A stretch of DNA of 57,709 nt, from IMG/VR virus record IMGVR_UViG_3300030107_000393, positions 1-57,709 of that record; one strand, given 5' to 3'. A program made the position numbers and the translations under genes. Of this stretch, positions 1 through 37,731 are shown piece after piece. The number at the start of each line of letters is the position of its first letter. Within the stretch, counting starts at the first letter, position 1. The notes beneath the pieces were generated by a model. That model was not told where the DNA came from, searched no databases, and worked only from the letters and a program-made list of their open reading frames with translations. The DNA is from a virus.

Positions 1-106
1 GTTCCCAATCTGGGTACTGTAAACGTACAAAGCCAAGGAAAGATTCCTGTGAGTCTTTTAATTTGAGTAGATACTTGGCGACTTCTGCCTGAGATAGTTT
101 AGCCAA
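1..106 (-). CDS. terL: Terminase large subunit, N-terminal part (gene crosses the contig join)
   Basis: This is the first 35 or so codons of the large terminase; the rest is at 56090-57709. Reading the minus strand from an in-frame stop at 118-116, the only usable start is TTG at 106-104. The frame then runs without a stop through the terminal repeat into the ATPase domain. The joined protein would be about 541 residues, the usual size for this family, with Walker A at residues 65-72. The first ATG lies only at 57526, directly before Walker A, and would remove the N-terminal adenine-binding region, so it is not the true start. The start overlaps the upstream 73-codon gene by 8 bases. A weak AGAAGG lies 13 bases upstream. 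Joining across the ends is inferred from the 98-base exact repeat. Confidence 0.85.
   Translation of the reverse strand, partial: MAKLSQAEVAKYLLKLKDSQESFLGFVRLQYPDWE
3..100. repeat. Left copy of 98-bp direct terminal repeat
   Basis: Bases 3-100 are identical to 57612-57709. Base 2 differs (T here, C at 57611) and base 1 matches again. The repeat lies inside terL coding sequence and reading continues in frame across it. That is what a circular assembly overlap or a circularly permuted genome would give. A fixed biological terminal repeat inside an essential gene is less likely. Confidence 0.95.
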
Positions 107-2762: not shown

Positions 2763-2791
2763 TTGACAAACTGTCATTCATGTATTACAAT
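2763..2791 (+). promoter_or_regulatory. Near-consensus sigma70 promoter of the AAA+/VWA operon
   Basis: TTGACA at 2763-2768 (perfect -35), exactly 17 bases, then TACAAT at 2786-2791 (five of six -10 matches). Start of transcription would be near 2798, about 18 bases before the ATG at 2816. A second TTGACA lies just upstream at 2746-2751, and TTGACC precedes that, so the -35 region is repeated and may be an operator. Confidence 0.85.
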
Positions 2792-2815
2792 CATCATTAC
2801 ACACAAGGAGGACTT

Positions 2816-4840: not shown

Positions 4841-4851
4841 GGAGGTAAAAC

Positions 4852-9992: not shown

Positions 9993-10990
9993 TGAAGTTA
10001 GTTGAGAGGAACGGACATCTATATGCTCATGGGTTTGTCAAGGATACGATGGGTAACACCCATCGTATTCGTAGGTCAACTGGATTTACTGTCGGACAAA
10101 AGACGTTAGCCAAGGAGAGAATGCGAGAAATATTCCGTGACGCAGGTAAGAAAGCAGACTTGGGTGCGAAGACGACAGTGGCAGACGCAATAAAACTTTA
10201 CCTGGGCAGCCGAAGTAAGCTGCCTGGTAGTACTGACATTGTGAATTTACGTCTGTTTGAGAATGAGTTTGGTCATAGATTTCTTTGTTCGTTGGGACAA
10301 GCCGAAGTCATGGATTATTTCAAGGGACGTGGAAACAAAGACAACAGTGTATCGAGAGAGATGACGTCTATCAAGTCGATGATTAACTACAACAACGACA
10401 TGGGTAGAAGTGTGCCAACGTATAAGCTGAAGCAACCAACGTCTGATGATGCACGAGTACGATGGCTTACAGAACGAGAGCGAGACAGAATGATTGTGTC
10501 TGCACGTGTATGTCTGCAACCGATACTGAGGTTCTTGTTTTATAGTGGTGCTAGACTTGGTGAGGCATTCAACCTGCGAGCAAGAGACGTTGAGACAACG
10601 TGTGTTGTTATCGTCTCTCGTAAAGGTGGACGTACACTGAGACGTAAAGTGCCAGTGCATTTTGTTACTTACATTAGTGACTATGGTTTCCGTGAGTTCA
10701 AGTCGAATGATGACATTGTATTTAGGTCAGACGATTACAACTCATGGAACAAATACAAGTTTTATAAGTACTTCAATGAAGCACTCGAAAAGGCAGACAT
10801 TGAGGACTTTAACCCCCATGATTGCAGACATACGTTTGCATCACATCTTGTGCAGAAAGGCGCAAGCTTGAGAGCCGTGGCTGATTTACTTGGACATACC
10901 TCTCTCGACATGGTAATGAGATACTCGCATCTTGCACCATCTCATTTACATGATACAGTAAACCTTATTAACAAACCAAAGGAGGATTAA
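9992..10990 (+). CDS. int: Tyrosine recombinase / integrase
   Basis: A 332-residue tyrosine recombinase, normal length for phage integrases. The N-terminal arm- and core-binding region spans about residues 1-150. The catalytic domain has all expected residues: R188 (SGARLGE), K211 (SRKGG), H276 and R279 (HDCRHTFAS), H302 (LLGHTS) and the nucleophile Y311 (MRYSHL). It should cut and join attP and attB through a covalent tyrosine-DNA intermediate. No directionality factor or attachment site could be identified nearby. It is the next-to-last gene of a long early-type operon, unusual for an integrase that normally has its own control. GGAGG precedes the ATG. Confidence 0.93.
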   Translation: MKLVERNGHLYAHGFVKDTMGNTHRIRRSTGFTVGQKTLAKERMREIFRDAGKKADLGAKTTVADAIKLYLGSRSKLPGSTDIVNLRLFENEFGHRFLCSLGQAEVMDYFKGRGNKDNSVSREMTSIKSMINYNNDMGRSVPTYKLKQPTSDDARVRWLTERERDRMIVSARVCLQPILRFLFYSGARLGEAFNLRARDVETTCVVIVSRKGGRTLRRKVPVHFVTYISDYGFREFKSNDDIVFRSDDYNSWNKYKFYKYFNEALEKADIEDFNPHDCRHTFASHLVQKGASLRAVADLLGHTSLDMVMRYSHLAPSHLHDTVNLINKPKED

Positions 10991-21585: not shown

Positions 21586-21911
21586 TTACCATTTTCTTTC
21601 GACCTTGTAAAAGCAGTTGTTCCCATAAAGGTAGCAACTATACCTAAGTTTGCTATAACATACGTTGAAAGTAAAGCAGTAACCATCTCAACTCTTGAGT
21701 CTGGTATAACAGGAGACATGACTAATACTATTAATATGATAGACGAGATAGACGATACCCAACACAGCATACGCTGTTGGTCTTGCATCTTGTCAGAGTT
21801 CTCAAGACGTATCATATGCTCAGACTGTGCTAGTTCTTTGTCTGTAACCACACCATCACCATCTAAATCAAACTGTTCGTATTGACTGCCTTTTTGTAGC
21901 TTCTTACTCAT
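21582..21911 (-). CDS. EF-hand protein with two transmembrane segments
   Basis: A 109-residue protein starting at ATG 21911 (ATGA overlap with the giant gene). Residues 15-26 (DLDGDGVVTDKE) form a complete calcium-binding EF-hand loop with ligands D15, D17, D19, T23 and E26. Two hydrophobic segments follow (WVSSISSIILIVLVMSPVI and VTALLSTYVIANLGIVATFM). This layout suggests a calcium-sensing holin or pinholin-like protein, or a membrane component of genome entry. Its place between the polyvalent protein and the lysis genes fits either. Confidence 0.75.
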   Translation of the reverse strand: MSKKLQKGSQYEQFDLDGDGVVTDKELAQSEHMIRLENSDKMQDQQRMLCWVSSISSIILIVLVMSPVIPDSRVEMVTALLSTYVIANLGIVATFMGTTAFTRSKENGK

Positions 21912-24900
21912 GCTCCCCAACCTGACTTCTGACCTTTAGAAACCCACTTAGCGTCTCCCCAACCAGTTTGAGCAGAGCCTTTTTTACCCTGTTCTCCTGC
22001 CATAGTATCAACAATACCTTCTCTAACATTTCTCATGCCACCAAGTATTGGTATTCTGGTTGCGAGTTCTCTCCATGCTGACCTTTCTTTAGCATTGCTG
22101 TTGTCTCCACCTACTATTGCGTCTTGTATTCCTGCTGCTCCTGTGATGGCTGCGTTTCCTAGACCATAAGAAGGACCGAGAAGTGAAGACCATATTCTGT
22201 TTTGACCATATGCACCATTGTCCATTTGAGAAGTAACTGAATGCATTACGTCTCCCAATAATCCAAAGCCACCCATTATCATCATACCTTCAAGATACCA
22301 ACCTAAGAAGTCGTTGTAATCTTCGCCATGTGTTTTTGAATCATAGCCAAGTGCTTTTGCTATGTTTCTTTTTCTTAGCTCTGGACTTGTACCATCTTCA
22401 CCACCACGAGACTGCACTATATCTTTCACAGATAGTGTCGCCATACCGAATGTAGGTCCGAGAAGTGCCATTGAAATCAATGGCTTTAGGTTTCCTTGAT
22501 TTGCTTCTTGCAGAACGTAGCCACCCATTCTTGACATCATAAGTGGGAAAGACTTCAACTGAAATACAAGCTGTCCTATAGGTGTCTGCGCCCATAATGG
22601 GACGTCATTTGGATTAGGTTGGAAAATACTTTCGTCTGCAAATTTAATGATAGCCATTCTTACTCTATCATCATTTAAAACATCTTCATCAGTTAAACTT
22701 GTATCTGCTTTGTTTTTCTTTGGTAAGTAATCTTCTAATCCATATCTTACTAAAAACCTATGTGCAGTTTTGTATTTTCCTGTTTGCTGTGAATATGGAA
22801 CGCCTACCTTGTGGTGTCTTGTTGCTTGTTGTTGCATAGCTTTTAATGCTTCTAATCCTGTAGCTCCTGCAATCTTTCTCTGCATGTCTGTCCAAGGAGT
22901 AAGTAATGTAGCACTAAAGAAAGCATGTGAAAGCTTATTGTCTGGCGCACCATACATATGAACCATTCTTTCATGCACAATGTTTTCCATTGCAACACCT
23001 ATATTATTAAGCATACGTCTGTAGTCTGGGTCAGTAGCCCATTTACCAACGCCACTAGCCCAACTTGAGAAAGAACCAGACCTTATAATTGGTAGCACTA
23101 TATCACCCAATGATGTGAGTGTGGTAAACCCAAGTAGCGTCACGTTGTTTACAGTTCTTATTAGCTTAGATGCTTCCATTAAAGACTTACTACCACTCAA
23201 TGGCTTCTTCATTGCTACTCTCATAGCATTGTCAATGAACTTTTCACTCTCGTATGCTATTGAGCCAGTTTGACCTTTGAAGTCATCTAACGCTCCTACG
23301 ATAGCATCAGCACGTCTTTTGTATGTAACGCTCATCTTAGGATATAAGTCATAGAGCATCTTCCTTGCTGCTGATGAGCCACTCTGTGCATGCACTCTAA
23401 TAAGTTCGTCTGCAAATTGTTTAGCACCAAACTCATTACCTTCAAACGGCATTCTAATTGTGTCAGTAAGAACTGATTCAACAATAGTTCCTTCTGCGTT
23501 CATGCCTCTAACATTCTTTTTAAATACTTTAGATGAAGAAAGTAGCTTAACAATACCATCTGCTCCTTGATTAGCAGTTAATAAGTAGTCACTGACAGCA
23601 TGTGTATTAACTCCCATCTTATCTGAATGCACCAATCTTCTTGTACTACCTTCAAGATACTTGACAAGTATTGCATCAAGGTCATTCTCTAAAAACTTTT
23701 CCATAGCATTCAGAGACTCTGGATAATCGCCAATGTTTAGAACTCTTGAGAAGTCTACGCTGTCATTGCCTGGGTTTTTAGAAAGACCACGTATGTCTTT
23801 GTGTGGCAGAAAGACGCCATCTTCTGCCGCATCTTCTGTTAATCTTAAATATATTTGCTCTGCAAATTTTTGTGCTTCTCCGTCTGCTGGCGTTTTACCT
23901 ATACTTGCCTGCTCCCTAACGTAATATTCATGCATTCCTTGTATAAACTCATCTTTATTCTTTCGAATAGCATTTTGATTCCATACTTGAGGAAGGTAAT
24001 TTTTTCTATATCCAACATGAAACCCAGATGCTTTTAATGCTCTACGTTCTGCATCAAATGTTTCTCTTATCTTATCAACCACAGCTTTTTCTTGTGGGTT
24101 AAGTGCTTGATATTGTCTGCTTTTTGTGTCACGTCTTAAAGCTCTTACTATTTTTCCATAGCTTTCTGGTTGACTTTGCATGACGCTACCTGTAGATTTT
24201 CTGAACCAACGTCTTAGGCTACCATCACTGTCTGGTAAGTCTCTCATTAAATTATTTATAGGCATGAACTTACCTGCAAACTTTTCAGATATTTCTGTAA
24301 AGTGGTTCTTGTACCAGTTGCCTAGCCATCTAGCACCTATTTTATTTAGTCTGTCTGATTGAGATTGAAACCATGTAGGAGCAGAAGAGTTTCTAATTAC
24401 TTCTACCTCTGCTTCGTTGTGTGGTCTTTTCTTAATCATTGAAGACGCAACACCTGTAAATGTTCTGGACTTTCCGTCTACTTCTAGCAGTTCTCCAAAC
24501 TTACCTGTAGGTATGTCGTCTACTTTTAGATTAGGTTCGTCTATCGCTGCCATAATAATAGAACCATTTGTACCTTCTGGTACACCACCACCTAATTCAA
24601 TATTAAATACTACACCAGATGTGCCGTCAAAATTCTTGGCTCTTACATGCTTTACTTGGTTAGGTTTAAATAAAACCACTCCTTCATGGTAAACTGCATT
24701 ACCTATTTTAATATCGTCAACGTCTGTAATTGTGTTGGTATGGCTTACAGTTAAACCATCATGTCCTAGTTCTTCAAACACATCTGTTAATGCATCTCTT
24801 GCTTCTGCTTTAGTAGATGAAAACTTATTCATCAACCTTCCAAAAGACTCATACAATTCAACGCCAGTTATAAACTCTAAGCCATAGAACTCTTCTTCCA

Positions 24901-27900
24901 TAGCTACGAAAGCATCTAATATGTCAGCGTCAGTTTCTCCTGCTTCTTTTAACTTAACGTAAATACCTTCTGATATTGTAGGAATAATCTTATCATCAAC
25001 AGCGTACCTTGTATTCTCTCTAAAATCTAATGGGTTTCTTAACTGAATGTAAGACGGCATTACATATGGCTCAAGAGTAATGCCTGACTTCTCAAGAATA
25101 TCAACCTTGCCTTTTTCAAGTGCAGTTAATTCTCTTAACTGGTCTTCTACAATAACTCTTTCTATAAAAGTTTGTATCTCAGTTGCATTGCCATTCTCAT
25201 CAGCGTCAGTAAACTTTGCATTCTGTCTTTTTAGTAATGATATTTTACCTCTGATTTGAGCTAATTCATAAGCAACATCTTCAAGCTCGTCTTTACCTTC
25301 GTCTGTTATTGGAAGCTTTTGAATCTGAAAATTAAGTGACTCTTTTGTTTGCTTTCTTGCGTAGCTTTCTTCAGCGACTACTGGATTTCTAGTTAGATAA
25401 ATACCTCTGCCATACAAAGAGTTTGATGAACTTAGGTTCATAACAGTACCAACGTCTGAACCATCAAGTGCTTTCTTATTTGGTGTGCCATGATAAAAGA
25501 TAACTGGTTCGCCAGTGCCAGTGTTATGACCAACTCCGTTTTTAGTGTAATCTACAATCTTTATTCTTTCTTCTGGCGTAGCATTTTTCCAAGCAGATTT
25601 GCCTGCGTCTGCTGCATGAGATGAATGAAACACGTCTTGGTCTTGAATTGGAAACTGTACGCCTCCTCTTCTATTTCTTACAAACATGTCTCCATACAAT
25701 CTTGTTAAGCCAAAGTAGCTTTTCTTAAAATCGTCATCTTTAACAAGACCATTCATAATGTATGCAACTTCTTCCATGTTTCTATGATAAATTTCAGATA
25801 AAGTGCCAAATACATCGCCTTCTGTATACCTTTGGTCTAGCTTAGAAGAAACACCTGTAAGCATTTCGTCTGCAAAATTCATAAGATGTCTTTCGTCTGC
25901 TGATGAGAATATTTTTTGAAAGTTACCTGCTAACCAATCAACCATTGCGTATTCATGTACAAGTTCGTCTGGCGCACCTTCTGATATAATGCTTGTGCCT
26001 CCACCTTTTTTATACGTATCCATAATTTTTTGCTGTTGCTTTGGTGATAATTGATTAAAAGCAAATGTAATTACATCTAATTCTTGTCTTGTCATAGATG
26101 CTCTTAAAGCCATGCCAGACAAGTATCTTACTGTCTCATCACCAGGCACTGAGTTAAGCTCTTGACCTATGCCTCTTGCAAATGTTCTAAGAATTGAAAA
26201 ATCACCACCTTGGAAGTCAGAAAATTCTTCTGTTCCTCTAGCTAAATAATCTCTACCTATTATTTTTGCTATGTCTCTTGATAATATTGGGTTAGCAAAC
26301 GTACCTTTTCTGGAAACTTTGCCTAATACATTTAACAATCTATATATAATTGTTCGAGACGCTAACTCTTTTTCTGGGTCACGATGTGTTACACGACTTA
26401 ATATATCCTTGACCATTGGTCTTGCATTGGCAGGTATGCCGTTAGACGTCTGTATTCCATTACTATCGTTTATTTCTATTTTAATCTTGTTATCTAACTT
26501 CTTAGACCTACCTATCATGCCAACATGCTTTGATGTATCCATGCCTTGCTTTTTAGCTTTTCTTTTGTCCATTCGTCTTTGCAATTCTCTTACTGCAAAG
26601 TCTCTTTCCTTTGTCATTCCCTTTGCGTTTGCATCATTCATAATGGCTTCAAGTTCAAACTTAGACATCTCAACATATTTACGTGGTATTGTCGTACCAA
26701 AAGATTTTTCTGGCATTGTAGAAGTTTTTAACTTCTTTATTATCTGTTCAGATATTTGTCTTCCATACTCTGTGCCAGCATGTTCACGTAACATCTTCTG
26801 TAAAACAGAAAGACTTTTTGTTGCTATCTCTCCTGCATTTCCTGTGTTTACTTTAGACTCTTTTCTTCTTGTCTTTTTATCTTTGAAATCTTTCTTTGCA
26901 GTTTCAATATCATTTTCAAAATCAGTTGCTTCTTTATTAAGTATTCTCTTTGTAGAATTAGATTTTTTACCTGCTCCTCTCTCAGATTTTTTCTTTGATA
27001 CTACTGCGTCTGGAGCTTCTGTATGAGTGCTACTCATAACTTTGTTTGTGTCTTCTACTTTTGCAAAGTTTCTTTCAAGGCTATCAAGAGCAAAATCAAA
27101 CATTCTGCTCATTGATGTTCTTTCTAAGTCTTTGATGTTTCCGTAATTATAACCAGTTACATTTCCGTCTGCGTCTCTTACTGCAAACCTATCTCCACCC
27201 TTGAAGTTCGGACCTTGATAGCCATGATGGAATAACTCTGTAAGATGCTCTGCAACAATCTCCATTTTAGCAGGGTCTATAATAGAAACTCCTGCGTTGC
27301 CTGCCTCAGTTGGGTTTCCTATTTCATTAGCTAACTCTACCCAATTTATATCTTCGCCTTTTGTATTTGCATTTTTAAATATTTCGTTTACGTCTTTAAG
27401 TCTTTCTTTAATAAGCCTTCTTGAATAAGGACTTAACATTTTAAAAGCACCAGACTTCTGTTTGTTGTAAACCATATTAGCCAATAGCCACATATCTTCT
27501 GTAAACATACTTACAAAAGTTTCTGGATTTGTAGTTCCTAATGGATATATCTCTGTCATCTCTTGCAATCTATGCAATACTTGGGATAGTTGCGTATGTT
27601 TTTCCAAAGCGGCTTTGCCTGCTGTAGTCTTTGGACTATGAGTACCCAAGCTTCTCTTTCCAATCTCTTCTTTGTTTGGAAGTATCTTTAAGAAAAATGG
27701 TTCTAATTCTGGGTCTATTGGTGTCTTGTAAAAAAATCTATCGAATGTTCCCTTGATATAACCAAGAGCTTTTTGCCAGAATGTTTCGTCTTTTATAACA
27801 AGCTTCTTGTCATTTCTTCCTGCCCAAGCGGCGAATTGATTTGCAAAGAACTCACCTGGCGCATCTAAAGAATTTGCAAAAGATGCAGTCTTTCCTTCTT

Positions 27901-30900
27901 CATACTCAGGTTTTAATGTGCTTGTAAAAGAGCCTTCGTCTAATTTATCTACGTTTAATTTACCACTTTCATCGTAGTATTTTGACATCTTTTCTAAAAA
28001 TTCAAGCCTATCTCTAGGTGTAAGAATGTTGTCAAAAGCCCAATGTGCTACTTCATGTAAAAGTTTTACATTCATTGGAGTTGCAAGACCAGACATTACG
28101 TCTTGTTTTGGCAGTATATTTACACCAGGTAGATTGTCAGTTGTAACATTTTCAGTTGAATAAAAGTTTGCTCTCATAGGAACACTAGAGCTTGACATTC
28201 TAGGACCTAATTCTGGATTACCACCCAGACGTTCAATGAAACGTCTAGCTGCAGCTATCTCTTCTGCGTCATAGCCATGAAATATTTTATCTAAATTGTT
28301 AAGTGTTTTTTGTCTGCTTGCTGTTGAGTCTATAAATCCTTCTGGTGGAAGCACTCTACTTTCCATATCCATAAGACCTTTATAAACTCTTATAACTTCT
28401 CTATGACCTTTAATTGTTTTAGACCATTTTGCTCCTTGAGTTGTAAAAAGTATTACATCTTTTATATCTTTATAACTAAGTTGAATATTTGCGCCACCTT
28501 TTGGAATTGTTGGTAGTTCAAATAATGGAGCATTGCCACTCATCGGAACTAAATCTTTTGCTATTCTATTATATGCTTCAAGTATTTCTACATCTTCTGG
28601 AGTAAGTGTTAGCCTTAATTCCAAAGCATCTTTAAGGTCTATAGGTTCTCCTACACCTGTAGCACCACCTGCTTCAACTCTACTGCCAGCAGACGGAGTG
28701 CCTTGTTCGTCTGGCAAGCTTTCGAATAATTCTCTTAACCTGCTTCCATATACTTTTGTATCAGCAGGAGCATACTTAACAGTCCAGTTGCTTGGGTCTG
28801 AGGCATCTCCACCCTTTTGACCAATGATTGCTTCAATACCTTTGCCGTCTGCAACTTGTTTTTTAGAAATAATCCTGACGTCATCAGGATTATTTTTGTT
28901 TTGTACAATAAGTCTTTTGTCACCTCTAGTTGGAGGAGAGACATCTGCGTCTGGAGTTGCTATTGTATTTTGATTTTGAGGTAAGTCACTAACCTCATTC
29001 TTTTGAATTGCTCGTAAGACATTTAATAATTCTCTTGCATCTCCACTTTCAATAGCTTCATCAAGAGCTTCTTGTGCATTTAATTTAGGAGGAAGTTTAT
29101 CATTTTTAGGTTGTTTTGTAGACTGACCGATTAGATTGGCTGTGTCTTCTCCGTCTGGAGCATTTAATCCTGTTCTTTTAAAAGCGGCTTCTTTGTTTAA
29201 GAATACTTTTCTTGTATATCCGTCTGCATATAACTTAGCACCTATTGGAGCTTTTACTTCTTTGCCAGTTTCATCTATTGCAGTTGTTCTTTGGTTTGCA
29301 TAAAAAGCTACAAGTCTGTTTGGCGAGTCTCTTCTTGCTTCTTTAGATTTAAGGTAAGCAGTTTCTCTATCACCATACTTTACATTATCTGCGTAGCCAG
29401 GTCTTCTGCCAATGGTGTCGCCTTTTTTAAGTATGCCTTGTATTTTGCCAGACTCTTCTCTGCCTGCTCCTACTCTTTGTCCTGCTCTTTCTATTGACTC
29501 GCCAGTAGTTCTTGCTTTGCCTTGTTTGTTAGCTCTTTGATTAAGAAAGGCAGTTCTTGCTTTTGCTATAGTTACGCCTTTGATTCTGAGCTTTGAGTCT
29601 TCTGGAGATTTAGCTTCTTGATTTCTAAACCTTTGTAAAATCTTTTTATATTGTCTGAACTCATCATCATCTAATTGATTGTCTAATCTCCATGTAGCAT
29701 CGTCAGATAACTTTAATGTGTCTTCGAAAGGTATATCATCATCAATCTTTATTGTATTCTTTTGCAAACCTTTTTCTGATTCAAAGGTTCTAGCCAAAGA
29801 TGCTCTTACGTTCTCGTCTACAGGCGAACCTGTAGCTCTTGTAAGTTCTTCTACAAGACTATTAAACTCTGTCTGCTCTGTGCTTTCTACATCAGGCTGT
29901 TCTTTTTTTGTTTTTCTTTTTCTGTAATTGACAACATTCTGCGCTCTTTTCATAGAGACTGTTGTCTCACCTTTTTTAACAGTTACTTCTTGTGGGTCTA
30001 TACCATTTGCTCTTAGATAGTCTGCGACCTCTTGTTCCATAGGAAGAGCAGCATCTGCTTCTTCTGCTTCAGAAATAACTTCGTCTGCTATTGTATCAGC
30101 ATTCGTCTGCGGCTGTGCCTGTTGTCCCTGTGCGTCTCCCTGTTGTCCCTGTAATTCTACGTCTCCTCGTGGTCTGCCTGCCTGACCAGTTGGCGTTACA
30201 GGAATAACATCGTCTGATACTAATTGCTCAACTTTCTTACCATAAGGATTTTCTCTTAGATATGCGAGTATTTGGTCAAGGTCGCCATCAAAGTCAGAAC
30301 CATCTTCGTTTCTAATATTGTCTACTATTCTGTCTCTTTCATTAAGCCAAGCACGATATTCTCTTGCTTTTTGTACGCCTCTAGGACCTTTAGCTTCTAA
30401 TTTTGATATTAATTCTTCTGTCTTAGGTTTAATAACTGCGTCATGCTGTTTAACTTCTTGTAATAAAATTAAGAATGTTTCTTCTTCGTCAGCTTCTGCA
30501 CCACTTGATTTAATGTTTTTAATTTTTTCTTGTTGTCTTTGAATCAGTTGGTCAATAGTTATCGGAGTTGGTACTGTTTCTTCTGCTGTTTCTGTAACAA
30601 CTTCGTCTGCCTGTTGTGGTGCGCCTAGTATGCCAGATACTTCTTGGTATCCTTTTAATGATTCTTCTGGTAAAGCGGCTATCTGTTCTCTTGTTAATCC
30701 TTTAGCCATTAAGTCACTGACTACGTTTCTGCCAGCACCTAATCCTGCCAATGCAGACGGAATACCTAATGCTCCACCTGCTACACCACCTATTGTAGCT
30801 CCTAATCCTGTAGCCAATCCAAGCTCGCCTTTACTAAATTCGTCTCTTAGACCAAGTTGTATATCTCTTGCCTGTTGGGACGCATTTACGATACCTTCTT

Positions 30901-31453
30901 GTGCGCCTGATATACCACCTTCATAAAGTGCGGCTTTTCCTGTACCACGTGCAACTGCTCCTAATGCAGTTTTGCCACCGATAAATGCGCCTTTTGCTGT
31001 ATTATATGCGGCTCCTACTGGTATTAGGTTGAGAGGGTCTGCTACTAATGCGCCTGCAATATCTGGGAGTGCTGTCGCAGCCCCTCTACCACCTTCCTGC
31101 CAGAACATAGGTAGTTGTTTCCAGACGGACTCAATCCTCTTTGCACGTTCTCTGGATTCAGTCCCCATTCCCCAAGGTTCAAATGCACCACCTATAGCAG
31201 AAACTGTATTAAGTTCTCTCCAAGTTGAGTCGCCATAGAAGGCATCTATAAGAACATCGTCTGTCCAATGTATAGGTCTGCCTTCTTTTTCTTCGTAGTA
31301 ATCTCTAAGGTCTTGAAGAAAGCGTGGGTCTTTAAGTATCTTCTGTGGATTTATATTTGAAGTATAGTCTGATTGTTCAGTTGAAACTGTAACATTATCA
31401 AGACTAAAATCTATGTTGTTAAAATAAGGTTGATTAAAAAATTTTTCTGCCAT
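21908..31453 (-). CDS. Giant polyvalent internal/ejection protein
   Basis: A 3181-residue protein, by far the largest gene. Two likely enzyme domains are visible. One is a metallopeptidase with HEVAHWAFD (H1133, E1134, H1137). The other is an ADP-ribosyltransferase-like fold with IFYHGTP (H1988) followed by YGRGIYLT and a YAR segment, as in polyvalent proteins. Long charged or helical linkers lie between. The C-terminal 350 residues are partly hydrophobic with Gly-rich helices (ISMALLGPTFGMATL, MMIMGGFGLLGDVM) that could insert in a membrane. Such proteins are packaged in the capsid and injected with DNA, acting against host defences. GGAGT precedes the ATG. Confidence 0.82.
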   Translation of the reverse strand: MAEKFFNQPYFNNIDFSLDNVTVSTEQSDYTSNINPQKILKDPRFLQDLRDYYEEKEGRPIHWTDDVLIDAFYGDSTWRELNTVSAIGGAFEPWGMGTESRERAKRIESVWKQLPMFWQEGGRGAATALPDIAGALVADPLNLIPVGAAYNTAKGAFIGGKTALGAVARGTGKAALYEGGISGAQEGIVNASQQARDIQLGLRDEFSKGELGLATGLGATIGGVAGGALGIPSALAGLGAGRNVVSDLMAKGLTREQIAALPEESLKGYQEVSGILGAPQQADEVVTETAEETVPTPITIDQLIQRQQEKIKNIKSSGAEADEEETFLILLQEVKQHDAVIKPKTEELISKLEAKGPRGVQKAREYRAWLNERDRIVDNIRNEDGSDFDGDLDQILAYLRENPYGKKVEQLVSDDVIPVTPTGQAGRPRGDVELQGQQGDAQGQQAQPQTNADTIADEVISEAEEADAALPMEQEVADYLRANGIDPQEVTVKKGETTVSMKRAQNVVNYRKRKTKKEQPDVESTEQTEFNSLVEELTRATGSPVDENVRASLARTFESEKGLQKNTIKIDDDIPFEDTLKLSDDATWRLDNQLDDDEFRQYKKILQRFRNQEAKSPEDSKLRIKGVTIAKARTAFLNQRANKQGKARTTGESIERAGQRVGAGREESGKIQGILKKGDTIGRRPGYADNVKYGDRETAYLKSKEARRDSPNRLVAFYANQRTTAIDETGKEVKAPIGAKLYADGYTRKVFLNKEAAFKRTGLNAPDGEDTANLIGQSTKQPKNDKLPPKLNAQEALDEAIESGDARELLNVLRAIQKNEVSDLPQNQNTIATPDADVSPPTRGDKRLIVQNKNNPDDVRIISKKQVADGKGIEAIIGQKGGDASDPSNWTVKYAPADTKVYGSRLRELFESLPDEQGTPSAGSRVEAGGATGVGEPIDLKDALELRLTLTPEDVEILEAYNRIAKDLVPMSGNAPLFELPTIPKGGANIQLSYKDIKDVILFTTQGAKWSKTIKGHREVIRVYKGLMDMESRVLPPEGFIDSTASRQKTLNNLDKIFHGYDAEEIAAARRFIERLGGNPELGPRMSSSSVPMRANFYSTENVTTDNLPGVNILPKQDVMSGLATPMNVKLLHEVAHWAFDNILTPRDRLEFLEKMSKYYDESGKLNVDKLDEGSFTSTLKPEYEEGKTASFANSLDAPGEFFANQFAAWAGRNDKKLVIKDETFWQKALGYIKGTFDRFFYKTPIDPELEPFFLKILPNKEEIGKRSLGTHSPKTTAGKAALEKHTQLSQVLHRLQEMTEIYPLGTTNPETFVSMFTEDMWLLANMVYNKQKSGAFKMLSPYSRRLIKERLKDVNEIFKNANTKGEDINWVELANEIGNPTEAGNAGVSIIDPAKMEIVAEHLTELFHHGYQGPNFKGGDRFAVRDADGNVTGYNYGNIKDLERTSMSRMFDFALDSLERNFAKVEDTNKVMSSTHTEAPDAVVSKKKSERGAGKKSNSTKRILNKEATDFENDIETAKKDFKDKKTRRKESKVNTGNAGEIATKSLSVLQKMLREHAGTEYGRQISEQIIKKLKTSTMPEKSFGTTIPRKYVEMSKFELEAIMNDANAKGMTKERDFAVRELQRRMDKRKAKKQGMDTSKHVGMIGRSKKLDNKIKIEINDSNGIQTSNGIPANARPMVKDILSRVTHRDPEKELASRTIIYRLLNVLGKVSRKGTFANPILSRDIAKIIGRDYLARGTEEFSDFQGGDFSILRTFARGIGQELNSVPGDETVRYLSGMALRASMTRQELDVITFAFNQLSPKQQQKIMDTYKKGGGTSIISEGAPDELVHEYAMVDWLAGNFQKIFSSADERHLMNFADEMLTGVSSKLDQRYTEGDVFGTLSEIYHRNMEEVAYIMNGLVKDDDFKKSYFGLTRLYGDMFVRNRRGGVQFPIQDQDVFHSSHAADAGKSAWKNATPEERIKIVDYTKNGVGHNTGTGEPVIFYHGTPNKKALDGSDVGTVMNLSSSNSLYGRGIYLTRNPVVAEESYARKQTKESLNFQIQKLPITDEGKDELEDVAYELAQIRGKISLLKRQNAKFTDADENGNATEIQTFIERVIVEDQLRELTALEKGKVDILEKSGITLEPYVMPSYIQLRNPLDFRENTRYAVDDKIIPTISEGIYVKLKEAGETDADILDAFVAMEEEFYGLEFITGVELYESFGRLMNKFSSTKAEARDALTDVFEELGHDGLTVSHTNTITDVDDIKIGNAVYHEGVVLFKPNQVKHVRAKNFDGTSGVVFNIELGGGVPEGTNGSIIMAAIDEPNLKVDDIPTGKFGELLEVDGKSRTFTGVASSMIKKRPHNEAEVEVIRNSSAPTWFQSQSDRLNKIGARWLGNWYKNHFTEISEKFAGKFMPINNLMRDLPDSDGSLRRWFRKSTGSVMQSQPESYGKIVRALRRDTKSRQYQALNPQEKAVVDKIRETFDAERRALKASGFHVGYRKNYLPQVWNQNAIRKNKDEFIQGMHEYYVREQASIGKTPADGEAQKFAEQIYLRLTEDAAEDGVFLPHKDIRGLSKNPGNDSVDFSRVLNIGDYPESLNAMEKFLENDLDAILVKYLEGSTRRLVHSDKMGVNTHAVSDYLLTANQGADGIVKLLSSSKVFKKNVRGMNAEGTIVESVLTDTIRMPFEGNEFGAKQFADELIRVHAQSGSSAARKMLYDLYPKMSVTYKRRADAIVGALDDFKGQTGSIAYESEKFIDNAMRVAMKKPLSGSKSLMEASKLIRTVNNVTLLGFTTLTSLGDIVLPIIRSGSFSSWASGVGKWATDPDYRRMLNNIGVAMENIVHERMVHMYGAPDNKLSHAFFSATLLTPWTDMQRKIAGATGLEALKAMQQQATRHHKVGVPYSQQTGKYKTAHRFLVRYGLEDYLPKKNKADTSLTDEDVLNDDRVRMAIIKFADESIFQPNPNDVPLWAQTPIGQLVFQLKSFPLMMSRMGGYVLQEANQGNLKPLISMALLGPTFGMATLSVKDIVQSRGGEDGTSPELRKRNIAKALGYDSKTHGEDYNDFLGWYLEGMMIMGGFGLLGDVMHSVTSQMDNGAYGQNRIWSSLLGPSYGLGNAAITGAAGIQDAIVGGDNSNAKERSAWRELATRIPILGGMRNVREGIVDTMAGEQGKKGSAQTGWGDAKWVSKGQKSGWGA
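28867..28895. other. Perfect 12-bp hairpin inside the giant gene
   Basis: AAATAATCCTGA (28867-28878) pairs with TCAGGATTATTT (28884-28895) around a 5-base loop. It lies in the charged linker region and encodes NNPDDVRII on the minus strand. A stem this long in an AT-rich coding stretch is notable; it may just be chance. Confidence 0.6.
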
Positions 31454-31490: not shown

Positions 31491-33905
31491 TTAAGGGTTT
31501 AATAATTTTGAATCCAATATACTTGGTATACTTCCTATATCCTTTTCCATAAATTTAACAGGGTTATCTAAAAATTCTTTCATGTTTCTTTCATCTTGAG
31601 CAAGTCTTATAAGGTTATTTTTATCTTTTAAATATTCATCTATCTGCCCTAATATATTAATATCTATATTTGGATTTATAAAACCCTGATAACCACCTGC
31701 ATCTCCTCCACTCATACCTCCACCTAATCCAAATCCAAAGACAGGATAGTAGTTTGTATGAGATGTATAGCCTTGTTCTTTAAGTGTTTTATAAAAACTT
31801 TGCGCTCTATCATTTATTAATTTTACTACTTCTGCTTTAGCATTGTCTGCTGAGAAGCCTTGGTTATTTCCTATTTTATCTATAATAGATTGTACTGTAT
31901 TATCAAACTGTACAGTGTTCTGAGGTAATGGGCTAAAGTTAGTAACATTAGGATTGCCTTTTAACTCTTTAACTTGCTCTCTTAATATTGCCATTTTATC
32001 ATATAAACTTTGACCAAGTGCATTAGCCTTGTTCCAATCCCAAATATCTGGCTGTCCGTCTTTTACCCAAATTGTTTGATTTTTCCCTGCTGTATTTATA
32101 GCATTTGTAATCTCTGATTGAGTTTGGTTTATTTGATTATTTATTGCGTTTAGTTTTGCAAGAGTGGTTTCATCTACTTGATTGTTGTTAATTATGTTTT
32201 CAAGTTCTGAAATGTTATTTGTTATAGAGTCAAATGCAAAATCAAAAGATTGACTAAAGCCATTTTCCCATTCACTATATTTTTGAATTTTAGGTATGCT
32301 TCCTATAAGAGAATTTTCAACAGCTTTAGTTCTTTGGTCCCATCTAATTAAATTAGTTCCTAAAACACTTGTAAAATATGATTCAAGTTCAGCAACACTC
32401 GGTGGAACATTCTGAGGAGTGTATGCTTTTATTGCTTGTGCAAGAACATTCATAGTAGTTCTGTCCATATAATAAGTATCAGCCATGTTTTCTATTGCAA
32501 GCACCATATTGCCACCTGCTAAAGTACCATCTTCCATCTTTGTATTGATGTACTTACCCATTTTTTCACCAAAATATGCGTTTGGTAATGCTTTACTGGT
32601 TTTCTTTTCTTCTGCAATTTTGTTAATCACAGACTGTGATTGTTTTGCTTCAAACTGTGCATAATTATTTTGTTGGTTTTCAGCCATAGCACCTATTGTT
32701 TCACCTAGCACTGTCTTAATTTCTGCTAATATTTGACCTTTATATCTTTCTGATGTTCCTTCGCCAAATACTTCGTTTAAATAATCGTCATCATATTGTC
32801 TTGCTAGAATTTCTTCTGCAAGTTTTACTAATCCTGCTTCGCCAGCTTGTTTAAAAGCTTTGTAAGCAACAGTACCTTCAGTTTGTATATTAGTAAGGAC
32901 TTGAGCTTTTATAGCGTTTGCTATAGTTTGTAACTCATTTTTATCTCTTTTCTTTTTTTCTTTGCTTTCTGATTCCCAAACAGAAAGTAGCTTGCTGTAA
33001 TTGCCCTCTACTAATATAGCTATCTTATCGTCACTCAAAGGTAATTTTCTGTCTTTTGCCTGTTGTACTAAATAATCTTTTGCTTCTTTTTTTATTTGTT
33101 CGCCTGTCTTTGTTCCAGAAATCCAATCTTGTTGGTATTTTTGCATGAAGTCATTTACAATCTGTGACTGATTAGATAAAAATGAGTCTGACTCTTCTAT
33201 CATTTTCATATTATAATCAGCATTAACTGTTTCAAAAGTTTCTTTTATTTTCCATTTAGGAATAAAAGTTTGATTGCTTATTAAAGCTACTTCATTGTCA
33301 GATAATTTTAGTTCTTCACCTAAGTTTCTTTTTGCTTTTAATTTATCAAGAATTAAAGACTGAACTTCTGGCATATTTTTTGTAAATATATCGTCTCTTG
33401 CCTTAGTTGCATTTTCTATTGAAAAAACATTTGCAATAGTTTTTGTCATATCCATGTCTAAGTCTGTTCCTAGATTTTCTTTTAGATTGTTTAAAAATTC
33501 ATTTTCTAAACCATTTAAAAAACTACCTTGTAATTCTTTTGATGCACCTAAAAATTGTTGCGATTGCATTTTTTGTGTTAAAAAATTCATTGCTTTTTTA
33601 CGCAAGTCTTCTTGAATTTCTGCTCTTTTACTATAATTACTAAAATTTGTTTCAAGGTCTTTTTGTTTCTTTGCATCTAAATTTGATTGTGCAATTCTAC
33701 CAAGAACTTCTGTAGACGGAAGTCCTGCCTTTAAAAAGTTTCTGCCACCACTTAATATGTTTATCTGGTCTTGCATGTCTTGTAACGTAGCAAAAGGGTT
33801 GTCTTTCCTAAACTGTGCAAAAGTATCTGCTATGTCTTTTCTTGTTGCTCTGTCGTCTTCCATAGATTTACGGAAGCCACCTGCCATTGCACTAAAGTCT
33901 ACCAT
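31491..33905 (-). CDS. Internal virion protein, helical
   Basis: An 804-residue, largely helical, Gln/Asn/Lys-rich protein with no signal peptide (ILSGGRNFLKAGLPSTEVLGRIAQSNLDAKKQKDLE). A Gly-rich stretch (FGFGLGGGMSGGDAGGYQGF) lies near residue 720. It sits between a gp14-like protein and the giant polyvalent protein, the place of internal core proteins in T7-like genomes. A role in genome ejection across the cell envelope is inferred from order and composition, not from a recognised domain. Confidence 0.65.
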   Translation of the reverse strand: MVDFSAMAGGFRKSMEDDRATRKDIADTFAQFRKDNPFATLQDMQDQINILSGGRNFLKAGLPSTEVLGRIAQSNLDAKKQKDLETNFSNYSKRAEIQEDLRKKAMNFLTQKMQSQQFLGASKELQGSFLNGLENEFLNNLKENLGTDLDMDMTKTIANVFSIENATKARDDIFTKNMPEVQSLILDKLKAKRNLGEELKLSDNEVALISNQTFIPKWKIKETFETVNADYNMKMIEESDSFLSNQSQIVNDFMQKYQQDWISGTKTGEQIKKEAKDYLVQQAKDRKLPLSDDKIAILVEGNYSKLLSVWESESKEKKKRDKNELQTIANAIKAQVLTNIQTEGTVAYKAFKQAGEAGLVKLAEEILARQYDDDYLNEVFGEGTSERYKGQILAEIKTVLGETIGAMAENQQNNYAQFEAKQSQSVINKIAEEKKTSKALPNAYFGEKMGKYINTKMEDGTLAGGNMVLAIENMADTYYMDRTTMNVLAQAIKAYTPQNVPPSVAELESYFTSVLGTNLIRWDQRTKAVENSLIGSIPKIQKYSEWENGFSQSFDFAFDSITNNISELENIINNNQVDETTLAKLNAINNQINQTQSEITNAINTAGKNQTIWVKDGQPDIWDWNKANALGQSLYDKMAILREQVKELKGNPNVTNFSPLPQNTVQFDNTVQSIIDKIGNNQGFSADNAKAEVVKLINDRAQSFYKTLKEQGYTSHTNYYPVFGFGLGGGMSGGDAGGYQGFINPNIDINILGQIDEYLKDKNNLIRLAQDERNMKEFLDNPVKFMEKDIGSIPSILDSKLLNP

Positions 33906-33908
33906 ATA

Positions 33909-35426
33909 TTAACCCCTTCTAAACAAGTCACCAAAAAATTGACCTGCCTTATCCAATCCACTGTATATAAAATCATCAAAACCTTTTCCAAGGTAATCAC
34001 CATCTTTGCCTGTTCTATAGTAAGAATCAGCACCTAATTTTTGTAAGTCCATACCAAAACCAGAACTTGCATTTGCTAAGTTTGTCATAGCGTTTGTATA
34101 ACCAGTTGTTGCGCTACTTAATAAGTTTTGACCAACATTCAATGCGTTGCCCATGTAAGTACTTGCGTTTGGTGTTACAATCGGTGTCGCACCAGTAATA
34201 GCAGACTTAATATTCATTCCTTGGTTTGTTGATAAAGTTGGTAAATTTCTGTATTGTGCTATGCTTGATATAGGGTTCATGCCTCCGTAAATAGCAGAGC
34301 TTACATTTATAGGAGACTGATAGCTTCCTGCTGATAATACGTTTCTATCGTAGACGCCAGAAGGTAAAGAGCTTGCCATATTATAAATGCCAAGACTTGA
34401 TGGCATGTCTCTCATGTTCATCATCTCATTAATACCTGCACCACCTATTCTTGCAGTCTCGTCTAATATTGCACCACGTCTTCTAAGCACAGAATCTAAG
34501 TTTGCGTTGAGTGCTTGGTTCTGACCAGTTATGTATGCCAGTGCATCATCTCCTGCTCTCATTCTTGCACTTTGATATTCGTCTGCAAGTCTTCTTGCTA
34601 TTTCGCCACGAGCATCAGTTGCTGTAGAACTTACATCTACTCCACCTCTTATAAGGTCTGCTTCATTAACAGACGCAACTGCTTCGGCTGCTCTGTCTAT
34701 GTCGCTTTGATATGCCTTTGTTCGTCTAGCTGTCTCTGCGTTTAAATCGCCTTGAGTTATTCTTTGTACTTCTGGGACGTCTCCAAGCTTCGCTGCAGTT
34801 TCGCTTAGAGCAGTTCTTAGACCATCTATGTTGTTCATTATTCTGTCACGGAAAGCCATTTGCTCTGCTTTTTCACCTTCAGCCATAGCTTTAGCTTCTT
34901 GGTATTCTTGCATCTGAAAATCACGCTCTATCTTTCTTAGTTCCTGCGCTTCTAAAAATCTTCTCTTGTCTTCGTCTGCTTCTCCCTGTGCTATACGCTG
35001 TGCTTCTTTTAACTGTTGTATTGCAAACGCTCTTTCTGATTCTGATAACGCTTCGTTTTTAAGAAGTCTTTCCATTCTAAAAGCGGCAAGCTTGGCTGCT
35101 TCTCTGTCTTCTTTTATCTGTCTTTCTATTTGTTCTCGTCTTTCTTCAAGAAGTATTTGTTTGTTTCTCTCTAGCTCGTCTAATTGAAACTGTCGTTCCT
35201 CTTGAGCCATAAGTCTGTTCATTTGTTCTATTTGTCTGAGGTAAGCATTCTCTTCCATGCTTTGACGGAATGCATCTTGAGCCAACCCAAGGTTGGCTCT
35301 TTGTAATCCCATCTGTTCTCGAAACATGTACTCTTGAAGCTGTTGTGCTTCTTTGGCACGTTTGTTTTGTTGCATCATTCCGATGCCTGACATGCCCAAA
35401 CCTATTAGTTGTAAACCGAAGCCCAT
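33909..35426 (-). CDS. Internal virion protein, coiled-coil
   Basis: A 505-residue protein. It opens with a small hydrophobic Gly-rich helix (GFGLQLIGLGMSGIGMMQQ), then a very long charged coiled coil to about residue 210 (Gln/Glu/Arg-rich heptads). A less charged C-terminal region has repeated Asn-Ala and Ser-Ser patterns. A hydrophobic start followed by a coiled coil recalls T7 gp14-like internal core proteins. It is three bases from the next gene in the late operon. Confidence 0.65.
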   Translation of the reverse strand: MGFGLQLIGLGMSGIGMMQQNKRAKEAQQLQEYMFREQMGLQRANLGLAQDAFRQSMEENAYLRQIEQMNRLMAQEERQFQLDELERNKQILLEERREQIERQIKEDREAAKLAAFRMERLLKNEALSESERAFAIQQLKEAQRIAQGEADEDKRRFLEAQELRKIERDFQMQEYQEAKAMAEGEKAEQMAFRDRIMNNIDGLRTALSETAAKLGDVPEVQRITQGDLNAETARRTKAYQSDIDRAAEAVASVNEADLIRGGVDVSSTATDARGEIARRLADEYQSARMRAGDDALAYITGQNQALNANLDSVLRRRGAILDETARIGGAGINEMMNMRDMPSSLGIYNMASSLPSGVYDRNVLSAGSYQSPINVSSAIYGGMNPISSIAQYRNLPTLSTNQGMNIKSAITGATPIVTPNASTYMGNALNVGQNLLSSATTGYTNAMTNLANASSGFGMDLQKLGADSYYRTGKDGDYLGKGFDDFIYSGLDKAGQFFGDLFRRG

Positions 35427-35429
35427 AAT

Positions 35430-37289
35430 TTATGCCCTTATAATATTTTGACTAAACGCTGATGATGCAGGTACTCCAGTATTTGTAAACTCATCTTCAT
35501 CATTTAACATTGCTAAATAAGTCTGCAAAGCAACTGGGTCTTGTAATGCAAATTCTGGGAACTGCGCTACACCACCTTCCATCATGGATAATATGTCGTC
35601 TCTCTCCTTTTGTTTTCTAAGCTCCACGTTTCTTTCATCTTGTTCTAATCTGAATTGCTGAGAATCTAATTCTTGGCTAATTGCATCTATTTCATCTAAT
35701 GCTTGCTCTGCATTAAATAAGTCTACTTGGTCTTGCATGGCTGTTAACTCTGCATTAGGGTCTGCTAAATCTGCTGTGCCATAATACTGAGCGTTAAGTA
35801 TTTTATCTCTTAGAGCCTGTGCTTGAGTTTCTATTTCATTTCTTTTGTCACTTAGCTCTGTAAGTTTTTCGTCAACACTTGTAAGACCTAAAGCAATTTG
35901 TGCTTTGATGTCGTCTACTCTACCACCTGTAAACTCTGATAAAGCACCTCTTTGTTCTCTAAGATTTGACTGAACGTCTCTGATGCCTGCTTCGTCTGAC
36001 AGTTCAAGACCTTCTAACGCAGGTCCGAAACCTTCTACATTAGATAGTATGTCGTCTAGTGCCGTCTTTCTTTCTGCTTGTAAGTTTGCCAATGCAGTTT
36101 CACCTTGGTTTAGTGGGTCATCTACATTACTAAAATCAAAATCAAGCTCAGAAGTAAATCCTGCTCTGTCTGTTTTTAAATCTCTTATAGCGTCTGCAAT
36201 CGCATCAAGATTGTTTGCGTTGTAAATGCTACCAGTTTCTGCTGCTGATTCGATGCCTCTTGCTGTATCAAGAAGGTTTGTTTCAAAGTCTGATATTCTT
36301 TGTAACTCAGCATCTCGTTTATCAGATAGCCTGTTTACATCTCTTGATACACCAGTAAGTTCTGCAAGCTCATCGCCAAAGTCGAAGCCTAGTTCACTAG
36401 AAAATCTACCAGATTTTTTTTGTAAGTCTGATATTTCGTCTTGCAGTGCCTGTATCTTGTCAGCGTCTGCTATACCTATGTTGCCTAAACGAGTTGAATA
36501 GTCATCTACATTAGTAAGTATACCTGATTCAAAGTCAGATATTCTATCAAGTTCTGCTTGTCTTTTGTCTCTTAAATCTTGAAGACCTGTTGTTAAAATT
36601 CCTTTTTGAGAATCAAAAGTTCCAAAACCACCTGGTAGCATTTGGTCTAAGATAGATGAACTAAATCCAGTTTTTCTTGCTTCAAGTTGTGCAAGCTCTC
36701 TTTCTAACTGGTTCATTCCTCTTTCGTCTGCAATGCCTAGTTGGTTTAATCCTGTACTTCCTAGTGACAAGTCTCCTAATAATTGGTTTCTAAAATCTTG
36801 AATACGTTTTTCTTCTGCGTCTCTTTGAGATTTCATAGTGCCAAGTTGACTTAATTGATTTGATGCAGAGCCAACTAGCTGATTGTAAAGATTTGTATTT
36901 ACTTTATCTAATGTTGGTATGTCATTAATTGTTACTGTGCCATACTCTGTGTCTATTGTTTTATCAAATATTGGTTTGTCTGTATCGAATAGACCAAGCT
37001 GACCTAATCCAGTTTGATAACCTGTTAAATTTGTTTTATACTGATTGTACAAATTTTCATTAACAGATGTAGTAGGGTCGTCAAAAAAATCTACAAAACT
37101 TGTGTTAGCAAGATTTGACCTCATATCTCCTAAGTTTGTAGAAAATCCAGATAAAGACTCATTATACTTTTTAACTGCTTCGTTATAGGCGTCTGCTTTA
37201 TCTTGATAGTCTTTTGCTGTTTCTTTAGCTATCTCGCCTTTTTCTTTAGAATAATCTGGTGGTGGAGGATTTTTATTACCTTTACCCAT
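35430..37289 (-). CDS. Coiled-coil structural protein with repeated units
   Basis: A 619-residue acidic coiled-coil protein with a Pro-rich start (KNPPPPDYSKEKGE). The central part contains at least four related units that end in a variant of LSDKRDAELQRISDFE or LRDKRQAELDRISDFE and contain LGIADER/LGIADAD segments. Internal duplication is therefore evident. Probable internal or tail-connected virion protein in the podoviral ejection set; no enzyme motif seen. It overlaps the acetyltransferase gene by 8 bases. Confidence 0.68.
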   Translation of the reverse strand: MGKGNKNPPPPDYSKEKGEIAKETAKDYQDKADAYNEAVKKYNESLSGFSTNLGDMRSNLANTSFVDFFDDPTTSVNENLYNQYKTNLTGYQTGLGQLGLFDTDKPIFDKTIDTEYGTVTINDIPTLDKVNTNLYNQLVGSASNQLSQLGTMKSQRDAEEKRIQDFRNQLLGDLSLGSTGLNQLGIADERGMNQLERELAQLEARKTGFSSSILDQMLPGGFGTFDSQKGILTTGLQDLRDKRQAELDRISDFESGILTNVDDYSTRLGNIGIADADKIQALQDEISDLQKKSGRFSSELGFDFGDELAELTGVSRDVNRLSDKRDAELQRISDFETNLLDTARGIESAAETGSIYNANNLDAIADAIRDLKTDRAGFTSELDFDFSNVDDPLNQGETALANLQAERKTALDDILSNVEGFGPALEGLELSDEAGIRDVQSNLREQRGALSEFTGGRVDDIKAQIALGLTSVDEKLTELSDKRNEIETQAQALRDKILNAQYYGTADLADPNAELTAMQDQVDLFNAEQALDEIDAISQELDSQQFRLEQDERNVELRKQKERDDILSMMEGGVAQFPEFALQDPVALQTYLAMLNDEDEFTNTGVPASSAFSQNIIRA

Positions 37290-37731
37290 TTATAGTTCTC
37301 CTGTCTTTATACCATTTTGGTGTGTCTTCGTCTCTTAAAAGACCATAAATAATACCATCTTCATATTGACCATTTTTATTTTCAAAAAATTGTCTGGCTA
37401 TTCCTTCTTGTTTAAAACCCATAGTCTTATTGAGCTTATGTGCTTTTTCATTTGATTTCTTAACTATGCTTGATACTCTGTTACAGCCACAAGTATCCCA
37501 TACATAATCAAACAAATGAGATATAAAACGCTTCTGCCACCATCTTGGATTAGTTGAAACTACATTTACTTGAATATCATTCTTAGAATAATTGGTAAAA
37601 ATAACAGCACCAATAAGATTTCCATTTTCTTGAAAACCAAAACATTGGGGATTATGCCATGTAACTTCATCTAAAAATTTACTAGCCCAATTTGATATTC
37701 TTTTATTTTCGTCTGTTATCATCATTATCAT
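37282..37731 (-). CDS. GNAT-type N-acetyltransferase
   Basis: A 149-residue protein with GNAT topology: an N-terminal strand pair (FGFQENGNLIGAVIFTNY), a degenerate acetyl-CoA-binding region around NPRWWQKRFISHLFDYVWD, and the C-terminal segment VKKSNEKAHKLNKTMGFKQEGIARQFF typical of the family. It would transfer an acetyl group from acetyl-CoA to an amine. Acetyltransferases embedded among tail genes are known in other marine phages, but their targets are not. It starts on the stop of the fibre gene (TAATG) and overlaps the next gene by 8 bases. Confidence 0.78.
   Translation of the reverse strand: MIMMITDENKRISNWASKFLDEVTWHNPQCFGFQENGNLIGAVIFTNYSKNDIQVNVVSTNPRWWQKRFISHLFDYVWDTCGCNRVSSIVKKSNEKAHKLNKTMGFKQEGIARQFFENKNGQYEDGIIYGLLRDEDTPKWYKDRRTING

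What the first reader, a model, noticed from the sequence alone, without database searches (positions are those of the whole stretch)
21908..31453. Giant polyvalent protein with protease and ADP-ribosyltransferase-like domains
At 3181 residues it fills 17% of the genome. HEVAH (1133-1137) and a FYHGTP/YGRGIYLT signature (from 1988) mark two candidate effector domains delivered with the DNA. Long unassigned stretches may hide further effectors, such as anti-defence activities.
Basis: partly seen in the sequence, partly recalled or inferred. Interest (0 to 1): 0.75.

Follow-up and report, generated by a model that had tools for sequence, protein, structure and literature searches.

The report
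Giant phage ejection protein carrying enzymes
A marine virus of bacteria makes one giant protein that looks like part of the channel that pushes its DNA into the cell, and that also carries a domain predicted to chemically tag host molecules (ADP-ribosylation) and a likely zinc protease; this is a known strategy, seen here conserved throughout a recently described virus family.

Summary
On the minus strand, window 21908-31453 encodes one intact 3181-residue protein (16.5% of a 57.7-kb, apparently complete genome) of the marine CRP-810-type phage family. The ADP-ribosyltransferase (ART) domain is solid: Pfam ART-PolyVal above cut-off, H1988 and Y2019 invariant in 72/72 relatives. HEVAH is conserved together with a glutamate (E1201) 64 residues after the second histidine, as in zincin metalloproteases, but the zincin fold was not confirmed. 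First, the conserved C-terminal ~880 residues model like core ejection proteins of T7-type phages (Z 13.4/11.0/10.4; next match 5.5), so the protein is most likely the ejectosome's gp16 counterpart with enzymes built in. Second, a second HExxH...E domain exists; it is dead in the window's clade, while another clade kept it and lost the first. Of 59 relatives scored, none lacks both. No further effector was found. It is a new member of a known kind (polyvalent proteins, Iyer 2017). Best mechanism: ejection into the host at the start of infection, ADP-ribosylation of host targets, and a zincin that either processes the giant chain or cuts host protein. Packaging, activities and targets are inferred.

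The parts
21908..31453 (-). giant ejection/polyvalent protein gene, 3181 aa (stop codon 21908-21910)
30674..31453 (-). residues 1-260, conserved N-terminal region with glycine/alanine-rich hydrophobic stretch (about 121-240); its counterpart in CRP-810 (gp36) is annotated 'internal virion protein D'
29654..30673 (-). residues 261-600, charged, poorly conserved linker
28187..29656 (-). residues 600-1089, moderately conserved patches, no family match
27809..28171 (-). residues 1095-1215, putative zincin A: H1133, E1134, H1137 (28043-28057) and third ligand E1201 (27851-27853)
25874..26386 (-). residues 1690-1860, zincin-like domain B, catalytic residues lost here (R1776, Y1777, G1780, D1839 in place of H, E, H, E)
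24584..25558 (-). residues 1966-2290, ART domain (ART-PolyVal), H1988, Y2019, Y2031, D2232, E2257
25082..25336 (-). residues 2040-2124, coiled-coil insert inside the ART domain
21911..24556 (-). residues 2300-3181, mostly helical T7 gp16-type ejectosome core, the most conserved part
31491..37289 (-). three large neighbouring genes (804, 505 and 619 aa) without family match, at the position of the other ejection proteins (function by position only)

Best explanation
The gene encodes the large ejection (internal core) protein of a short-tailed, integrase-bearing marine phage of the CRP-810-type family, built as a polyvalent protein. Its C-terminal ~880 residues form the T7 gp16-type ejectosome core. 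With the neighbouring ejection proteins it is packed in the head, leaves ahead of or with the DNA, spans the envelope, and brings its middle part into the cell. There the ART domain (H1988-Y2019-E2257) uses NAD+ to ADP-ribosylate host macromolecules. The zincin (H1133, E1134, H1137, E1201) most likely either cuts the giant chain to free the ART or other parts, or cuts a host protein; a zincin-like domain B has lost its catalytic residues in this clade. Shown here: the gene, the ART family membership, the conserved residues, the likeness of the predicted fold to ejectosome proteins, and the complementary loss of the two zincin-like sites. Inferred: packaging and ejection, enzymatic activity, targets, and what the zincin cuts.
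For: ART-PolyVal above cut-off, detected in 25/29 diverse relatives; H1988 and Y2019 in 72/72. C-terminal model: the three best PDB matches are T7-type ejectosome proteins, Z 13.4, 11.0, 10.4 against 5.5 for the next; viral models named internal virion protein and large polyvalent protein associated domain also match. The ART part of the model best matches the cyanophage A4 pre-ejectosome, 9k3a_B Z 10.5, and the likely gene for that chain (A-4L ORF27) carries YHGT and GSGTY. Gene order: last large gene of the structural operon, as vRNAP in N4. HExxH and E1201 are kept together (51/51) or lost together (8/8). dN/dS 0.07-0.5 in every part of the protein.
Against: No virion proteomics. No sequence-level match of the C-terminus to any solved ejection protein; its model has mean pLDDT 58.5, pTM 0.44, and helical models give inflated Z. 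The zincin sheet was not modelled and no zincin fold was found. The third ART position is not acidic in 28 of 72 relatives.
Confidence: 0.72

Rival explanations
1. The zincin is an autoprocessing protease: one intact zincin, A or B, suffices to cut the giant protein and free the ART-bearing middle from the ejectosome scaffold, before packaging or after ejection. This variant of the best explanation commits to the substrate.
For: At least one intact zincin in 59/59 relatives although A and B were each lost once. Iyer et al. proposed such processing; P1 DdrB is processed before packaging.
Against: Only two loss events. N4 vRNAP, with a like motif, is packaged unprocessed. No cleavage site or fragment known here.
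Confidence: 0.33
2. The zincin is itself an effector that cuts a host protein (for example a defence or envelope protein) after ejection, independent of the ART.
For: Zincins act as effectors in other conflict systems; conserved in all relatives in at least one copy.
Against: Same evidence fits self-processing; no target known.
Confidence: 0.3
3. The HExxH...E domains are not proteases but zinc-stabilised or other scaffolding helices of the ejection machine.
For: No zincin fold found; mostly helical model; HExxH also occurs in non-protease proteins; dead B still under purifying selection, so a structural role exists.
Against: Catalytic E1134 is kept together with the ligands in all 51 A+ rows and decays together with them.
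Confidence: 0.2
4. The ART-like domain is a catalytically inactive NAD+- or ligand-binding or structural module of the ejectosome.
For: The third triad position is T, Q, K, M or R in 28 of 72 relatives.
Against: The window itself has E; H and Y are invariant and the G residues nearly so; PARP-type enzymes with a non-acidic third residue can be mono-ARTs (own knowledge).
Confidence: 0.12

Closest known systems
Roseobacter phage CRP-810 gp34-gp36 (OR671924) and its family (PMC11288001)
   Same: Same gene, same place, same domains (two HExxH motifs, YHGT, GPGIYL; 30-55% identity by piece)
   Different: CRP-810 keeps both zincins and its record shows the gene in three frames; annotated only as internal virion protein D and hypothetical proteins, and no mention of ART or protease was seen in the parts of the paper read
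Polyvalent proteins of phages (Iyer et al. 2017, PMC5512222), in particular the Roseovarius Plymouth podovirus 1 vRNAP (CBX87992.1)
   Same: Giant virion protein with an ART plus zincins; RPP1 has YHGT at 1029 and HEMAH/HEMVH at 1291 and 2520
   Different: RPP1 carries an N4-type RNA polymerase; none found here, and there is no significant sequence similarity
Cyanophage A4 (Anabaena phage A-4L) pre-ejectosome protein, PDB 9k3a chain B
   Same: ART-type fold with YHGT and GSGTY motifs inside an ejectosome protein
   Different: About 1700 aa, no HExxH, no sequence-level homology
T7 gp16 and the PhiM1 tetrameric ejection protein (PDB 7eyb, 8vb2)
   Same: Predicted fold of the C-terminal ~600 residues; gene order
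   Different: Those carry lytic transglycosylase-type domains, not ART or zincin; no detectable sequence similarity
N4 virion RNA polymerase
   Same: Giant (3500 aa) last ejection protein with an HExxH domain (HELVH at 2228) and a large helical C-terminus
   Different: Carries an RNA polymerase, no ART motif found; no detectable homology to the window protein

Membership tests
Polyvalent protein (Iyer et al. 2017) | Two or more domains of unrelated biochemical activity in one polypeptide | tested here: met
   ART plus likely zincin plus gp16-type core
Polyvalent protein (Iyer et al. 2017) | Delivered into the host with the element's DNA | tested here: inconclusive
   Inferred from gene order and ejectosome-like fold; no virion data
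ART-PolyVal (PF18760) | Curated score cut-off | tested here: met
   31.5 bits in the whole protein and 40.5 bits for the domain, cut-off 31.2
ART-PolyVal / Tox-ART-HYD2 clade | H in strand 1, Y in strand 2, D in strand 5 | tested here: inconclusive
   H1988 and Y2019 on modelled strands and invariant; third residue is E2257 here (D/E in 44 of 72); invariant D2232 is an alternative
Zincin-like metallopeptidase (MPTase of polyvalent proteins) | HExxH on one helix, E on the next helix | tested here: met
   Both on modelled helices; E1201 kept in 51/51 HExxH+ rows and lost in 8/8 HExxH- rows
Zincin-like metallopeptidase (MPTase of polyvalent proteins) | Three-stranded sheet of the zincin fold, match to known zincins | tested here: inconclusive
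   No sheet modelled in a low-confidence N-terminal part; fold lists filled by the coiled coil; no Pfam match
Zincin-like metallopeptidase (MPTase of polyvalent proteins) | Zinc-dependent proteolysis | not testable with these tools
   needs protein
T7 gp16-type ejection protein | Fold of the C-terminal core | tested here: met
   Z 13.4, 11.0, 10.4 to three ejectosome proteins, next 5.5; model of modest confidence
T7 gp16-type ejection protein | N-terminal lytic transglycosylase (phage-specific, not universal) | tested here: inconclusive
   No Pfam match in the whole protein; N-terminus not folded
N4-type virion RNA polymerase | Single-subunit RNA polymerase module | tested here: not met
   No match in Pfam, PHROGs or NCBIfam, and no significant match to N4 or RPP1 vRNAP
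CRP-810-type phage family | Synteny and shared genes (cobS/cobT, integrase, TerL, portal, GNAT, ejection operon) | tested here: met

The most novel reading that the evidence does not exclude
The protein is a self-processing ejectosome subunit. Either of two redundant zincins cuts the ejected chain so that an ART is released from the DNA-entry channel into the cytoplasm at the first moment of infection. This would couple DNA entry to release of an effector, with natural experiments in which different clades kept only one of the two proteases.
Probability: 0.27. Interest if true: 0.7.

Novelty: new member of a known kind. Interest (0 to 1): 0.45.

Why it matters
It adds a marine phage family to the polyvalent ejection proteins and ties an ART and a likely protease directly to a T7 gp16-type ejection core; Iyer et al. 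inferred injection of such proteins from context. A cultured relative (CRP-810 on strain FZCC0198) makes packaging, processing and host targets directly testable, and the complementary loss of the two zincins gives a clean comparison between clades.

Tried and rejected
Further hidden effectors: Pfam, PHROGs, NCBIfam and PADLOC scans of the whole protein gave only the ART. Residues 600-1089 were aligned but not folded for want of jobs, and 1300-1690 was folded only inside the large model, so an unknown enzyme there is not excluded. N4-like RNA polymerase: no match, and no significant sequence or profile match to the N4 or RPP1 vRNAP. Zincin fold by structure: Foldseek and VIA-align lists were filled by the coiled-coil insert, so nothing could be concluded. 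Gene fission as evidence for separable domains: CRP-810's three ORFs break at about residues 300-600 and 2340, near domain borders, but one break is an exact 31-bp tandem duplication and the other a change of frame, and L042 is broken elsewhere; sequencing error and recent mutation cannot be told apart, so I did not use it. Host-genome relatives: one scan of genome contigs found none, although PMC11288001 reports prophages. The PNAS paper on the cyanophage A4 pre-ejectosome is not held, so I could not check whether its authors recognised the ART.

Full report
What was checked. The ORF is real and intact: 3181 codons from an ATG at 31453 down to a stop at 21908, minus strand. The window's ends overlap by 100 bases with one mismatch, so the 57.7-kb genome is probably complete. 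Terminase, portal, capsid, tail fibre, cobS/cobT-like, integrase, Sak4-like and Cas4-type exonuclease genes and a gene order like that of Roseobacter phage CRP-810 place it in the CRP-810-type family described in PMC11288001. The gene is the last large gene of the structural operon; beyond it lie a small ORF, an unassigned ORF at the position of the CRP-810 holin, and a lysozyme.

Relatives. Pattern-plus-tblastn scans found up to 254 related places in viral contigs for the C-terminal query (80 kept per call). Only one close cultured relative is in the phage collection, CRP-810. After removal of duplicates, 72 proteins of at least about 1200 residues were aligned; complete ones are mostly 3077-3870 aa. 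The C-terminal third is the most conserved part, the charged linker 261-600 among the least.

ART domain. Pfam ART-PolyVal matches the window protein above cut-off and is detected in 25 of 29 diverse relatives. H1988, Y2019 and D2232 are identical in 72 of 72 proteins; the G residues of GxGxY are (nearly) invariant; Y2031 is Y or F. The residue ahead of the last strand is E2257 in the window and across the family D 23, E 21, T 17, Q 5, K 3, M 2, R 1. Iyer et al. describe the polyvalent ART class as H on strand 1, Y on strand 2, D on strand 5 (PMC5512222). In the AlphaFold2 model (mean pLDDT 71; mostly 75-90 over the ART) H1988 and Y2019 lie on two strands, and a helical coiled-coil of about 85 residues is inserted behind them; the Pfam match is split around that insert. 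The best PDB match of this region is chain B of the cyanophage A4 pre-ejectosome (9k3a), Z 10.5, rmsd 3.8, 193 residues. In the A-4L genome ORF27 (1717 aa, long enough for the matched numbering) carries YHGT (H1426) and GSGTY (1444-1448) inside the matched range. A viral model named ART-PolyVal-like also matches, E 1e-4.

Zincins. Domain A has HExxHW and, 64 residues after the second histidine, PxEfFAnQF. The chance of a lone HExxH in a shuffled copy of this protein is 3.5%, so conservation carries the argument. A second HExxH...E domain, B, lies about 190-200 residues before the ART motif in many relatives. The two profiles align with each other across both motifs (hhalign pairwise E 6e-4, probability only 29%), so descent by duplication is plausible, not proved. 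Of 59 proteins scorable at all eight sites, 29 have both sets intact, 22 only A (including the window), 8 only B, none neither. On a tree of the C-terminal region this needs one change in A and one in B. Counting rows would overstate the case: these are two events. Still, A is unbroken in all 22 descendants that lost B, and B in all 8 that lost A. When A loses HExxH it also loses E1201 (8/8), and rows with HExxH always keep the E (51/51 in A; all B+ rows in B), which marks E1201 as the likely third ligand. In the model both motifs sit on two helices in A and at the equivalent places in B, but the sheet of a zincin was not modelled and no zincin was found by fold search. I therefore call the protease likely, not shown. 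Dead B is still under purifying selection (dN/dS 0.16-0.33), so it probably keeps a structural role.

C-terminal ejection core. The 892-residue model is of modest confidence (mean pLDDT 58.5), but its three best solved matches are all T7-type internal core or ejectosome proteins: 8vb2 (PhiM1) Z 13.4, 7eyb (core proteins, T7) Z 11.0, 9vvp (phage E1004) Z 10.4; the fourth is Z 5.5. Predicted viral proteins that match it are named large polyvalent protein associated domain (E down to 1e-40, 26-37% identity) and internal virion or core protein (phiKT, VP2, LIMElight). There is no sequence-level match to any solved ejection protein. T7 gp16 is thought to send its C-terminal part into the cytoplasm (PMC8954989), which would put the fused enzymes in or near the cytoplasm; that is inference.

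Mechanism. Most likely: packed in the head core, ejected at the start of infection, anchors the DNA channel at the inner membrane, and exposes ART and zincin to the host. The ART modifies host macromolecules (T4 Alt, an injected ART that modifies host RNA polymerase, is the functional model). The zincin processes the chain or cuts host protein; Iyer et al. already proposed both roles for such zincins.

Comparison and verdict. Giant proteins with an ART plus zincins at this genomic place are known (RPP1 vRNAP). What is new is the member family, its lack of a detectable RNA polymerase, the fold link of its C-terminus to gp16-type proteins, and the complementary decay of two zincin-like sites. 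New member of a known kind; interest 0.45.

Noticed in passing
L032 5571-15211 (OR671924 21570-31210): In the cultured relative CRP-810 the gene is in three frames (gp36, gp35, gp34); one break coincides with an exact 31-bp tandem duplication. Real mutation or sequencing error is undecided.
   Followed up: partly
L042 1536-11392: Another relative has the gene broken into three overlapping frames at different places; probably sequence errors.
   Followed up: partly
L181 20116-25269 (KF356198 ORF27L): Anabaena phage A-4L ORF27, annotated only as tail protein, carries YHGT and GSGTY motifs of an ART; it probably corresponds to PDB 9k3a chain B. It gave no Pfam match.
   Followed up: partly
window 1-100 and 57610-57709: The window's ends overlap by 100 bases with one mismatch: the contig is probably a complete genome although the record carries no completeness estimate.
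   Followed up: partly
window 9992-10990: Tyrosine-type integrase family match (phrog_1, E 4e-46): a temperate phage, as reported for CRP-810.
   Followed up: no
window 2780-6732: CobS-like and CobT-like genes side by side, conserved in this phage family, role unknown.
   Followed up: no
window 37282-37731: GNAT-type acetyltransferase inside the structural operon, between ejection and tail genes; its place suggests a virion or assembly role rather than metabolism.
   Followed up: no
L173, L174: A distant pair of relatives has a 3870-aa version of the giant protein, about 600 residues longer ahead of zincin A.
   Followed up: no
window 28187-29656: Residues 600-1089 hold conserved patches (e.g. 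IIGQKGG..SDP.NW.V.YAP, about 878-902) with no family match; function unknown.
   Followed up: no
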